From a virus: 33,783 nt of DNA. This document shows positions 3 through 3,872 of the stretch, piece after piece; the stretch's first letter is position 1, and every line of letters starts with the position of its first letter. A model generated the notes under the pieces. That model did no database searches, was not told the origin of the DNA, and saw only the letters and a list, made by a program, of their open reading frames with translations. Location of the stretch: IMG/VR virus record IMGVR_UViG_3300033150_000765, positions 1-33,783 of that record. One strand, 5' to 3'. The position numbers and the translations under genes are program-made.

Positions 3-485
3 CAGGCAACGCCACTCCATCGAGATGCCATCCTGCTATGCCTGGCAATGGGCGGATTACGTATCGGGGAATTATGCAAGATCACACAGGATAACACGAA
101 CTTCATACAGGGCACGGTAGATATACCCGACCGCAAGGCGGGTGTACCGAAACGATTCTACCTGTCTGATTTCGCCGCATCCATTCTACGCAGAAGGTTT
201 CTGGAAAACGGCGGTGTAGCTTTCAAGCAGACAGCCAGACAACTGATACAGAGGTTTATATATGAGCGGCAGAAAATGAAAGGGGTCAAGCACTGGAGAT
301 TCCACGACCTCCGGCACACGATAACGGATATACTAGGCCGTAATCAGATAGACCTGGAGACCACCCGCCAGATACTGGGCCACACCAAACTCACCACGAC
401 ACAACGCTACATGCACTCGACCGAAACAAAGGAACGGTCGGCACTTGAACTGGTGGAGCAAGAATTATCCCGCCTTACCTCTTGA
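3..485 (+). CDS. int: Tyrosine recombinase (phage integrase), C-terminal catalytic part, cut by left edge
   Basis: Catalyses site-specific integration and excision of the phage. The frame is open to the left edge, so the N-terminal arm-binding and core-binding domains are missing; the first ATG (position 48) is internal. Seen: the first catalytic arginine in GGLRIGEL, the HDLRH box (H-x-x-R), then LGHTKLTTTQRYMH, which supplies the third histidine and the nucleophilic tyrosine. The catalytic domain therefore looks complete and active. It ends in a charged helix, as usual for the family. A strong promoter for the next genes starts 35 bp after the stop, and a candidate attP lies about 1 kb downstream. 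Family assignment is secure; the target site is unknown. Confidence 0.95.
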   Translation, partial: QATPLHRDAILLCLAMGGLRIGELCKITQDNTNFIQGTVDIPDRKAGVPKRFYLSDFAASILRRRFLENGGVAFKQTARQLIQRFIYERQKMKGVKHWRFHDLRHTITDILGRNQIDLETTRQILGHTKLTTTQRYMHSTETKERSALELVEQELSRLTS

Positions 486-771: not shown

Positions 772-1389
772 ATGAACTTGAAAGTCGTATCGGCTGACTG
801 GACGGGAGTGCATGAAGACGCACGCCAGGATGTTGTGTACAAGGTGGGCGAGATCGCCGAGTGTCCCGACTGGGATCCCGAACCCGAATGCGGTGGGGGG
901 CTGCATTACGCAGAGAACTCGTGGGACTACCTGCCCGAGACGCCGGAGGATGGTCACCTACTGGAGGTCGAGCCCATAGGTGAGGTTGTACGCGTCGAGG
1001 GCAAAAAATCGAAAACCAACCGCCTGCATGTAATACGTGAGATCACGGCAGTACCTACACCGGATGAGGAACCAGATAAGTTTGTGCGCTGCCAAATAGC
1101 GAAACACATCCCGGCCAAATACATCGATCACGTGTTAACGGACTTCGAGGAGATCGAAATCGAGGTACGATGGCAGGTGGCAGATCGCATTCCCGCGGAA
1201 CGCATCGATCATCTGCCGACGCAAGATGAGGAGCCGGACGTGGGAGTGCGCCTAAGGCTGGCTGAGCGTATCCTCCTGGAGCGCATCGATCATCTGCCGA
1301 CGCAAGATGAGGAGCCGGATATCGACATACGCCAGACCCTGGAGCATCGTATGCGGGTAGAGCAGAAAGTAGATCGGAGGTGCCAGTAG
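772..1389 (+). CDS. DUF7666-like protein with four 27-residue alpha-type repeats
   Basis: 205 aa, starting at the ATG after AAAGGAGG (757-764). Residues 1 to about 93 resemble small phage domains with a G-LH motif (here GGGLHYAENS, 42-51) followed by a valine-rich strand pattern (DUF7666-like; tentative). Residues 96-203 are four tandem 27-residue units. The consensus is roughly T-x-DEEPD-x-x-VR-x-x-(I/V/L)A-x-R-I-x-x-ER-IDHLP, which resembles leucine-rich-repeat-variant or HEAT-like helices. Units 3 and 4 are recent: 38 bp at 1201-1238 recur exactly at 1282-1319, an 81-bp period. The fold suggests protein or nucleic-acid binding; function unknown. The stop TAG abuts the next ATG, so the two genes are translationally coupled. 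Confidence 0.8.
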   Translation: MNLKVVSADWTGVHEDARQDVVYKVGEIAECPDWDPEPECGGGLHYAENSWDYLPETPEDGHLLEVEPIGEVVRVEGKKSKTNRLHVIREITAVPTPDEEPDKFVRCQIAKHIPAKYIDHVLTDFEEIEIEVRWQVADRIPAERIDHLPTQDEEPDVGVRLRLAERILLERIDHLPTQDEEPDIDIRQTLEHRMRVEQKVDRRCQ

Positions 1390-1524
1390 ATGAATAAGCA
1401 CATATTCACATTCGACCTCACCGAGCCTCTCTACAATAAGCTACGCAAGTTGGCCTTCAGGCGGCGGGTATCGATAGCCGAGATCATTAGGGGGGCGATA
1501 GAGGATTACCTGGCCCGAAATTGA
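1390..1524 (+). CDS. Ribbon-helix-helix (CopG/Arc-type) DNA-binding protein, 44 aa
   Basis: The start codon abuts the stop of the repeat protein (TAGATG). The N-terminal strand HIFTFDLTEPLYNKL is followed by two helices ending REIIRG-like (AEIIRGAIEDYLARN), the standard ribbon-helix-helix layout: alternating residues in the strand contact DNA, and the protein dimerises through the helices. The length, 44 aa, is typical for a single-domain member. Standing last in the P1 operon, next to the candidate attP, it could autoregulate P1, act as an excision directionality factor, or serve as an arc-like repressor. The fold is clear; its role is inferred. Confidence 0.85.
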   Translation: MNKHIFTFDLTEPLYNKLRKLAFRRRVSIAEIIRGAIEDYLARN

Positions 1525-1737: not shown

Positions 1738-1854
1738 AAATAACGGCTCGGAACTTGCTTTCCTTATTATAGGGACTCTGATACCTATTCGGGGTTTTCT
1801 TGCGTAGATAGCTCTCCAGAGCTTTGACTTTGGTACTGTTACCTTGCCTTTCAC
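1720..1854 (-). CDS. Possible basic 44-aa protein (weak)
   Basis: A GTG at 1854 is preceded at 6 bases by GAGGGG. The product would be strongly basic, starting MKGKVTVPKSKLWRAIYARK. It would be the last gene of the late operon, beyond array 1. I recognise no family, and its 3' end overlaps the candidate integrase arm sites, which argues against it. Listed only because the ribosome-binding site is good. Confidence 0.25.
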   Translation of the reverse strand: MKGKVTVPKSKLWRAIYARKPRIGIRVPIIRKASSEPLFPLVHF

Positions 1855-1887
1855 ACCGTTCCCCTCAAATCGAAGTAGTCAATTTAA

Positions 1888-1972
1888 CCTTGCCTTGCCT
1901 TGCCCCGCCATGCCGAGCCATGCCGAGCCCTGCCGCGCCGAGCCTCGCCATGCCGTGCCTCGCCCCGCCGCG
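1888..1972. repeat. NNGCC pentamer array 1
   Basis: About 16 tandem units of the form NNGCC with GCC invariant; the first two bases vary (TT three times at the left end, then CC, AT, GA, CT, GC, TC, GT). The array starts directly after the stop codon of the metallophosphoesterase on the minus strand. On that strand, which is the transcribed one, it reads GGCNN. Arrays 2 and 3 share its left-end sequence (AACC then TTGCC repeated). Confidence 0.9.
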
Positions 1973-2824
1973 TTATAAACTCTCAATCATAACCGAATGA
2001 TCGCGCTCAATCACGCGGGTAAAATGTCTCGAATATACATCTTCATCACCGCTCCTGATAATCGCCCCGCCTAGCTGTGGCGGCGACAGCCGAGCACCCG
2101 CTATCCTATAAGTGAATGGCGTCTTTAGCTGCCAGCCAGGGGTACAGAAACCAATAGATTCGACGTGCTTATCGGTATCGGTACGTGCGGGGAAGCTCAC
2201 CCGCGCATATCTGTGCCGATGACTGCGTACCACGAATAGCGGCACGCGCTCGCCCCAACGTGCCGACTCATTAAACTCACGAGCCATCTCTGCGTTGATA
2301 GCAGACGCCTCATGCTGCGAGCTAGACGTAGTACCGATGTGATGCATGATATGGCATAGCACGCCGCCAACTTCGATGAATAATTCATCTCTTGCGTATC
2401 GGCCGACCTGATCCGGCTTCGCCCCTAATGAGCGGGCGAGGCGTTCTTCTTCTTGGCCCGATTTACCTACGTGCGCTTCGGTACCGCGAATCATATATAA
2501 TTCGGCCGCCCTGTCGGCAATCGGCTTCAATATCTTTTCTGCTAGTTTCGCTTGATCAGATAGATTGTGCGAGATTTGAGTAACAGCCTTGTGATGTGTG
2601 CCGTCAATAGAATCTCCGTTCACTACTACCGCGAACGGCTCGCCCCTGCTAACCGTAGGTACCCATTCATTCCAAAACTCTTGCCAAATCTCCCATACCT
2701 TGCATTGCAACGCAGATGGTTTATAGTTACCGCCGCCGTCAAGCTCAATACCTTCCGGTGGACACAGCCCAAATTGACAACCTGCATGCAGGTCGGAGAT
2801 TATTACCAGATTATTGATAGCCAT
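1973..2824 (-). CDS. Calcineurin-like metallophosphoesterase
   Basis: 283 aa with TTAGGAGGG just upstream of the ATG. The two-metal motifs appear in order: D11-x-H13 (SDLHAG), NGD 69-71, a variant GNHE box GTEAH (114-118), histidines near 158-162 (HIMHHIG), and the final H-x-H at 202-204 (SHRHR). It should hydrolyse a phosphomono- or diester, with Mn or Fe in the active site; the substrate cannot be read from sequence. Unlike almost every other late gene it does not overlap its neighbours. It is bounded on both sides by pentamer arrays, which suggests separately acquired cargo. A nucleic-acid or nucleotide phosphatase role is the usual guess for phage members. Confidence 0.88.
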   Translation of the reverse strand: MAINNLVIISDLHAGCQFGLCPPEGIELDGGGNYKPSALQCKVWEIWQEFWNEWVPTVSRGEPFAVVVNGDSIDGTHHKAVTQISHNLSDQAKLAEKILKPIADRAAELYMIRGTEAHVGKSGQEEERLARSLGAKPDQVGRYARDELFIEVGGVLCHIMHHIGTTSSSQHEASAINAEMAREFNESARWGERVPLFVVRSHRHRYARVSFPARTDTDKHVESIGFCTPGWQLKTPFTYRIAGARLSPPQLGGAIIRSGDEDVYSRHFTRVIERDHSVMIESL

Positions 2825-2847
2825 TTCTTACCCTCCTAATTTATGAA

Positions 2848-2927
2848 CCTTGCCTTGCCTTGTCTTGCCCGGCCATGCCGCGCCCCGCCGCGCCTTGCCA
2901 CGCCTTGCCCAGCCTAGCCGCGCCCCG
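2848..2927. repeat. NNGCC pentamer array 2
   Basis: About 15 units of NNGCC in perfect 5-bp register with one GTC variant. It begins AACCTTGCCTTGCC, as do arrays 1 and 3, and its right end has TAGCCGCGCC, as does array 3. It fills the gap between the stop codon at 2934 and the ribosome-binding site of the metallophosphoesterase on the minus strand. Confidence 0.9.
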
Positions 2928-2933
2928 TAAAAT

Positions 2934-3488
2934 CTATTCCCATTTAGCCACTTCAAATCGCCCAAACTGCGGACGATATGTACCAAGCCCTATCAATAGA
3001 CCGCCCTTCTCAAAATGCTGTCGAAGCGTAGTCTCCTTCAAATACTCATTCTCAAACAACTCTATCTCAAAGCGTAACTGCCACGGGCGACGAATAAAAG
3101 GACGCTCCTTTGGATTCGGTACCCCATTCTTCAACCGCGCAACATCATGCCTAATCTGTACTTTTTCATTGAATCCGGTGAATATGATAGGATCGCCGTT
3201 ACCGTCAAGGATCGGTATTGGGTCTGGTAGTATTACTAAACAGCTCTTGACCGCCGCTGCAACTCCCTTCCACTTCTTTCCGCAAAACCTTTTTGCGCAA
3301 CTCTGTGTGTTTTCGGCAGCCAGGAAACTGAAAAGGTTCTGGACCGGCAAAACGAGCGTCTTGCCGTCGTCTGCGTAATATAGCTTTTCCTCGATCGCTA
3401 GTGCTGTGTCGTTGTCTCCCGCATATCTGTCGAACATCAGATCGCTTAAGCCATTCAACGTAACCTGCCGTGTCAAACTGTCGTTCAT
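2934..3488 (-). CDS. Conserved phage-type protein of unknown function, array-bounded
   Basis: 184 aa from the ATG at 3488, chosen because AAAGGA lies 10 bases upstream. Two upstream in-frame or overlapping starts (3524, and 3591 in another frame) lack good ribosome-binding sites. Seen: N-terminal QVTLNGLSDLMFDRYAG, then VLPVQNLFSFLAAENT, a proline-rich middle with KNGVPNPKERPF, and a C-terminal glycine-rich GLGTYRPQFGRFEV. The last motif is reminiscent of the glycine-rich loops of RAMP/Cas7-like folds, but that is only a resemblance. No catalytic residues are obvious. Arrays 2 and 3 stand on either side, making a repeat-bounded pair with the metallophosphoesterase gene. Confidence 0.75.
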   Translation of the reverse strand: MNDSLTRQVTLNGLSDLMFDRYAGDNDTALAIEEKLYYADDGKTLVLPVQNLFSFLAAENTQSCAKRFCGKKWKGVAAAVKSCLVILPDPIPILDGNGDPIIFTGFNEKVQIRHDVARLKNGVPNPKERPFIRRPWQLRFEIELFENEYLKETTLRQHFEKGGLLIGLGTYRPQFGRFEVAKWE

Positions 3489-3598
3489 GGTTCTCGTTCC
3501 TTTCTGCGCCTCGGATACTGGCATCTATTAATGCCTTGATCCACTCCGCTTCTTGGATCCCAGAATCACGTATGTCATGCTCTCTGCTCATTTAGTAA

Positions 3599-3675
3599 CC
3601 TTGCCTTGCCTTGTCTCGCCTCGACGAGCCCCGCCGAGCCTCGCCCCGCCGAGCCAAGCCTAGCCGCGCCTTGCC
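3599..3675. repeat. NNGCC pentamer array 3
   Basis: About 15 units in 5-bp register, with GTC and GAC variants. It begins AACCTTGCCTTGCCTTGTC, which is identical at this end to array 2, and ends TAGCCGCGCCTTGCCC. It lies upstream (on the minus strand) of the unknown array-bounded gene. A 197-bp stretch with no convincing gene separates it from the next upstream gene. Confidence 0.9.
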
Positions 3676-3872
3676 CGTTTATCTCACCTCCAATCATGTG
3701 TTGTAGAACCAACCTGACCATTCTCGACATCATCGTATCTTAGTCACAACGACTCAGTGACCAACTTCCCCACTTGGCAGACAAGGCTATGGGGCGGGTT
3801 CGGCCGGAGACAAGAGATGCCCGCGCGCAGGGAAGACAAATCAAGCGACTCCCGGTTAGCATCCTACTCATC

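What the first reader, a model, noticed from the sequence alone, without database searches (positions are those of the whole stretch)
1888..3675. Three intergenic arrays of a GCC-locked pentamer (NNGCC) between two late genes
Arrays at 1888-1972, 2848-2927 and 3599-3675 each have about 15-16 units in strict 5-bp register with GCC nearly invariant and the first two bases free. All three share the same left end (AACCTTGCCTTGCC), and two share TAGCCGCGCC near the other end. They occur only at the borders of two genes and nowhere else I see in 33 kb. A fixed three-base core with two variable bases suggests selection for a structure or protein contact every 5 bp (half a helical turn) rather than slippage alone. 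I know no named element family that matches.
Basis: seen in the sequence. Interest (0 to 1): 0.85.

Follow-up and report, generated by a model that had tools for sequence, protein, structure and literature searches.

The report
Phage RNA-guide arrays (VIPR system)
The three odd five-base repeat arrays are almost certainly guide RNAs of a VIPR system, a recently reported CRISPR-like weapon that phages use against one another, and the gene between two of them encodes the matching guide-binding protein.

Summary
Read on the minus strand, where the neighbouring genes lie, the arrays are 16, 15 and 15 units of GGC-NN (46/46 G, 43/46 G, 46/46 C). The longest such run elsewhere in the window is 2.
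They are best explained as guide RNAs (vrRNAs) of a VIPR system, described in a 2026 preprint (PMC13142463): GGY/NN pentamer RNAs held by a small RAMP protein, Vipr. The gene between arrays 2 and 3 (2934-3488, minus, 184 aa) is that protein. Its family profile matches the solved SUSP1 Vipr chain (36pp_D, E 7.7e-35). Its model (pLDDT 96) matches CRISPR Csm/Cas7 RAMPs best.
Relatives agree: 84 of 120 array-bearing viral loci encode a homologue, and 304 of 306 arrays lie on its strand. Most homologues found without using arrays have arrays; 171 control loci have none. Between two close relatives the NN letters differ completely while GGC and flanks persist.
I found no natural DNA target for the three guides and no self-target. 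A metallophosphoesterase gene between arrays 1 and 2 recurs beside related viprs and may be an accessory nuclease.
Verdict: new member of a known, very recently described kind.

The parts
3597..3677 (-). vrRNA-like array 3 (15 GGC-NN units, 13 exact), upstream of vipr
   Evidence: ends in AA AA AA GGTT like the other two
2934..3488 (-). vipr gene (184 aa, ~20 kDa RAMP protein); start inferred from the ribosome-binding site GAAAGGAAC; a longer ORF reaches 3524
   Evidence: profile match to SUSP1 Vipr 36pp_D E 7.7e-35; AF2 pLDDT 96; Foldseek best hits Csm/Cas7 RAMPs
2846..2926 (-). vrRNA-like array 2 (15 GGC-NN units, 14 exact), just downstream of the vipr stop and upstream of the ribosome-binding site of the next gene
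1973..2824 (-). metallophosphoesterase gene (283 aa) between arrays 1 and 2; possible vipr-accessory gene (inferred)
   Evidence: metal-site residues D11, H13, D71, H118, H161, H202, H204 invariant in 27 relatives; fold matches metallophosphoesterases including PolD exonuclease subunit and Mre11/SbcD; recurs beside related viprs
1886..1971 (-). vrRNA-like array 1 (16 exact GGC-NN units), just downstream of the metallophosphoesterase stop

Best explanation
The locus is a phage-encoded VIPR system. The minus strand is transcribed through array 3, vipr, array 2, the metallophosphoesterase gene and array 1. Each array yields a guide RNA (vrRNA) in which every GGC is gripped by one subunit of a Vipr (RAMP) oligomer, and the exposed NN pairs together recognise double-stranded DNA with one skipped base between pairs. 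Binding represses or otherwise hinders the matching gene of a competing phage, satellite or prophage. Shown here by computation: arrays, RAMP fold, homology to SUSP1 Vipr, strand and proximity association across relatives, and guide turnover. Inferred from PMC13142463 and not tested for this phage: transcription, RNA binding, the one-base-skip code and the target. The metallophosphoesterase as accessory effector is a guess.
For: Profile of the window gene's family hits PDB 36pp_D, named 'SUSP1 Vipr protein', E 7.7e-35; the profile of its closest relatives alone also hits it, E 1.2e-6. HMM of the same family hits the candidate SUSP1 vipr CDS with 113.6 bits. AF2 model pLDDT 96; the 50 best-ranked PDB fold matches listed are CRISPR effector structures, most of them type III Csm, best E 3.8e-6. 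Arrays match the published vrRNA format of 9-16 GGY/NN units. 84 of 120 viral loci fetched only for arrays encode a homologue; 304 of 306 arrays are on its strand and the nearest lies within 500 bp in 72 of 85 loci. Homologues found without arrays: 14 of 17 have arrays; 171 control loci: none. L071 against L104: vipr 89% identical in DNA, conserved array flanks, but guide letters 11/42 identical, i.e. chance.
Against: No convincing DNA target for any of the three guides in IMG/VR. No expression data. The 3' tail shared by the three arrays is only about GGTT plus the last AA units, with no conserved fold, whereas the characterised clade has a structured tail. Direct pairwise tblastn of the window protein finds nothing in the 'phages' collection, so the link to SUSP1 rests on profiles and fold. 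36 of the 120 array contigs had no homologue in the DNA fetched; some are evidently unrelated repeats (e.g. the GCCGT microsatellite of L066).
Confidence: 0.94

Rival explanations
1. The arrays are cis-acting leader elements: Vipr, or another repeat-binding protein, binds them just upstream of ribosome-binding sites to regulate translation, in the manner of TRAP on repeated GAG triplets. This could also be a second role of vrRNAs.
For: Arrays 2 and 3 end shortly upstream of a start codon or ribosome-binding site, and the same layout occurs in L009, L016, L034, L088 and L109.
Against: Tandem sets of arrays with no gene between them (L015, L090, L298); complete turnover of NN letters between close relatives; pure leader binding would not need variable NN.
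Confidence: 0.1
2. The arrays are neutral microsatellites made by slippage.
For: Tandem five-base period; neighbouring units sometimes repeat.
Against: GGC fixed while NN is diverse; tied to one gene family and one strand; none in 1.54 Mb of control viral DNA.
Confidence: 0.01
3. The arrays are DNA sites for replication, packaging or recombination, or borders of mobile cassettes.
For: They border each gene of the cluster and share one end.
Against: Fixed orientation relative to vipr; absent around the same metallophosphoesterase in 66 loci without vipr.
Confidence: 0.02

Closest known systems
VIPR system of Escherichia phage SUSP1 and its relatives (PMC13142463; PDB 36pp)
   Same: RAMP protein of about 20 kDa; several GGY/NN arrays of 9-16 units flanking it on its strand; phage-encoded; homologous by profile.
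   Different: GGC instead of the GGT-rich repeats of SUSP1; arrays alternate with genes; metallophosphoesterase neighbour instead of the SUSP1 accessory gene; short, apparently unstructured tail. Assignment to one of the seven types was not possible because the paper's supplement was not available.
Type III CRISPR-Cas Csm3/Cas7 RAMP subunits
   Same: Fold of the protein, including the glycine-rich loop (sequence GLGTYRPQFGRF).
   Different: Single small protein; no crRNA repeats and spacers and no cas operon seen; five-base guide period.
TRAP and its GAG-NN binding sites (from own knowledge, not looked up)
   Same: Fixed triplet every five nucleotides, bound by a repeating protein.
   Different: Different triplet, no TRAP homologue identified, NN hypervariable between relatives.

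Membership tests
VIPR system | Vipr: small RAMP homologue with glycine loop | tested here: met
VIPR system | vrRNA with 9-16 GGY/NN repeats | tested here: met
   16, 15 and 15 units, GGC throughout with three single-base departures
VIPR system | Conserved GGY, hypervariable NN | tested here: met
   Within the window and between L071 and L104
VIPR system | vrRNAs intergenic next to vipr | tested here: met
   Window layout; 72 of 85 relatives have an array within 500 bp
VIPR system | Invariable 3' tail after the repeats | tested here: inconclusive
   All three arrays end AA AA AA GGTT, but no longer shared tail or significant common fold; several relatives do share tails within a locus
VIPR system | Accessory (vap) gene | tested here: inconclusive
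VIPR system | Guides match DNA targets under the one-base-skip rule | tested here: inconclusive
   Six half-guide scans of IMG/VR gave only chance-level matches outside the seeds; best L209, 26 of 32
VIPR system | vrRNA expressed and bound by Vipr | not testable with these tools
   Needs small-RNA sequencing and pull-down
CRISPR-Cas class 1 | CRISPR repeat-spacer array and cas genes | tested here: not met
   Tandem-repeat scan and Rfam show no CRISPR repeat; no cas family among the neighbours searched
TRAP-regulated leader | TRAP protein and (G/U)AG triplets | tested here: not met
   Triplet is GGC; partner protein is a RAMP

The most novel reading that the evidence does not exclude
A phage VIPR variant armed with its own metallophosphoesterase (PolD-exonuclease/Mre11-like fold) that cuts or degrades the DNA found by the vrRNAs: a nuclease-bearing VIPR used between phages and not for host defence.
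Probability: 0.18. Interest if true: 0.65.

Novelty: new member of a known kind. Interest (0 to 1): 0.45.

Why it matters
VIPR is reported as an RNA-guided DNA recognition system with a gapped code and as a possible ancestor of CRISPR. The window adds an uncultivated phage member of a GGC-only clade, with arrays interleaved with genes and a metallophosphoesterase neighbour, and the survey shows more than 80 further viral loci. It also shows that vrRNA arrays can be found directly in raw sequence by a simple pattern, which makes large-scale surveys of guides and targets practical.

Tried and rejected
Self-targets in the window under 0-3 skipped bases: none above background. Six one-base-skip scans of IMG/VR with 8-unit halves of the three guides: 171 hits, no full-length target. 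V2's repeated hit in one conserved phage gene family (9 units..NAGAIRKSTT..) stops matching well beyond the seed and is treated as chance. All-against-all test of 174 vrRNAs on 2 Mb: one-base skip gives more matches of at least 75% (251 against 117-145), but codon periodicity and related sequences confound it. Target of one Candidimonas vrRNA in 268 genomes of its family: none. RNA folding of the arrays: no consistent signal (z -0.34, -2.21, -1.67). Promoter and terminator scan: no more than shuffles. Hammerhead or other Rfam families: none. tRNA: none. G-quadruplex reading (GG every five bases) was considered but not tested; it does not explain the fixed C.

Full report
OBSERVATION. The three arrays exist as described. 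All nearby genes of the cluster lie on the minus strand, so the arrays should be read there: [GGC NN] x 16, 15 and 15, each ending ..GGC AA GGC AA GG TT. Over 46 units the fixed positions are G 46/46, G 43/46 and C 46/46, while both N positions use all four bases. A four-unit pattern gives 29 matches against 0.01 expected in shuffles; outside the arrays the longest run is 2. The arrays are intergenic: array 3 upstream of the gene 2934-3488, array 2 between its stop and the ribosome-binding site of 1973-2824, array 1 right after the stop of 1973-2824.

RELATIVES. Some are coding repeats or microsatellites, but 84 of the 120 loci encode a homologue of the window protein 2934-3488 found by iterated HMM search. 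304 of 306 arrays in these loci are on the same strand as that gene, and in 72 of 85 loci the nearest lies within 500 bp.

IDENTIFICATION. A literature search for pentanucleotide repeats in phages returned PMC13142463 (bioRxiv 10.64898/2026.04.26.720920): VIPR systems, made of a small RAMP protein (Vipr) and vrRNAs of 9-16 GGY/NN repeats, whose NN letters recognise double-stranded DNA with one skipped base between pairs; SUSP1 phage is the model. The paper reports vrRNAs co-purifying with Vipr, repression in E. coli and phage defence. I tested membership independently. The alignment of 74 window-family proteins hits PDB chain 36pp_D, 'SUSP1 Vipr protein', at E 7.7e-35, followed at a distance by Csm5. 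The family HMM gives 113.6 bits with the SUSP1 CDS ALH47069.1, which is flanked by GGT-NN arrays as the paper describes. AlphaFold2 gives mean pLDDT 96, and the 50 listed Foldseek matches in the PDB are CRISPR effector structures, most of them Csm complexes, best E 3.8e-6. The C-terminal GLGTYRPQFGRF is a glycine-rich loop of RAMP type (inference from sequence). Conserved residues include R129, W136, G163, G167, G169, R172 and G176.

CONTROLS. To avoid circularity I took homologues found without arrays: through the neighbouring metallophosphoesterase or by protein motif in bacterial genomes. 14 of 17 have GGY arrays in the fetched DNA. After removing loci identical to ones first found by arrays it is about 9 of 12. 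None of 171 viral loci fetched for unrelated patterns has an array or a homologue, and none of the 66 metallophosphoesterase loci without vipr has an array. Genome hits lie in Methylococcaceae, Planctomycetota, Patescibacteria, Paraburkholderia, Candidimonas, Aurantimonas and Gammaproteobacteria records.

GUIDE TURNOVER. L071 and L104 have vipr genes 89% identical in DNA (179/199 aa) and conserved array flanks, yet the NN letters of corresponding arrays agree at 11 of 42 positions, as expected by chance, while GGC persists. This is what guides under changing targets should do, and it argues against slippage or a conserved binding site. In many relatives, as in the window, the last units before the tail are AA, possibly a constant handle (inference).

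TARGETS. Decoded guides (plus-strand order, variable part): V1 CC AT GA AT GA CT GC GA TC AT GT TC CC; V2 CG AT GC CC GC TT AC TT CA TA GC CC; V3 TC TC GA CC GA TC CC GA AA TA GC TT. No self-target. Six scans of IMG/VR with 8-unit halves produced no full-length match. The best, L209 for V3, has 26 of 32 letters and is not significant after the number of hits is considered. The opponent is probably absent from the collection; the code itself is not tested for this clade.

NEIGHBOUR. Gene 1973-2824 is a metallophosphoesterase with an intact metal site. Its model (pLDDT 91.7) matches GpdQ by E-value and the PolD exonuclease subunit by TM-score (0.56-0.59), with Mre11/SbcD also present. It stands beside vipr in several other loci, mostly of the same vipr clade, which hints at a functional link. 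But its closest relatives (47-59% identity) have no vipr within 4 kb, so it may be an independent phage gene. Whether it is one of the published vap families could not be checked.

GENOME. The window is a tailed-phage contig (terminase, portal and major head protein by PHROGs) with an integrase fragment at its left end, i.e. probably temperate, in line with VIPR's reported prevalence in proviruses.

VERDICT. A VIPR locus with three vrRNA arrays: a new member of a known kind, described only in 2026. Function in this phage is inferred by homology; no experiment or target supports it yet.

Noticed in passing
window 1197-1352: 81-bp tandem repeat (1.9 copies) inside the 664-1389 ORF, which matches DUF7666 (Pfam E 2.1e-10).
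   Followed up: no
window 48-485: C-terminal part of a tyrosine-type integrase at the left contig end; suggests a temperate phage cut at this point.
   Followed up: partly
window 1390-1524: Small plus-strand ORF of about 44 aa (MNKHIFTFDLTEPLYNKLRKLAFRRRVSIAEIIRGAIEDYLARN), looks like a ribbon-helix-helix DNA-binding protein; followed by a strong hairpin at about 1549-1585.
   Followed up: no
window 1838-1850: Downstream of array 1 in sense there is a short extra AAAGGCAAGGTAAC, similar to the common 3' end of the arrays; possible remnant of a fourth array.
   Followed up: no
window 3205-3591: A 128-aa minus-strand ORF starts just after array 3 and overlaps vipr in another frame; only its first part is likely coding, if any.
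   Followed up: no
L298 5190-5893: Aurantimonas MAG locus with at least seven tandem vrRNA-like arrays, most followed by a near-identical GGAGATTT-like tail, downstream of a vipr homologue.
   Followed up: partly
L005 6311-7008: Near-continuous GGC/5-nt tract of about 140 units next to a vipr homologue, far longer than the published 9-16 units; similar long tracts in L027, L060, L102.
   Followed up: no
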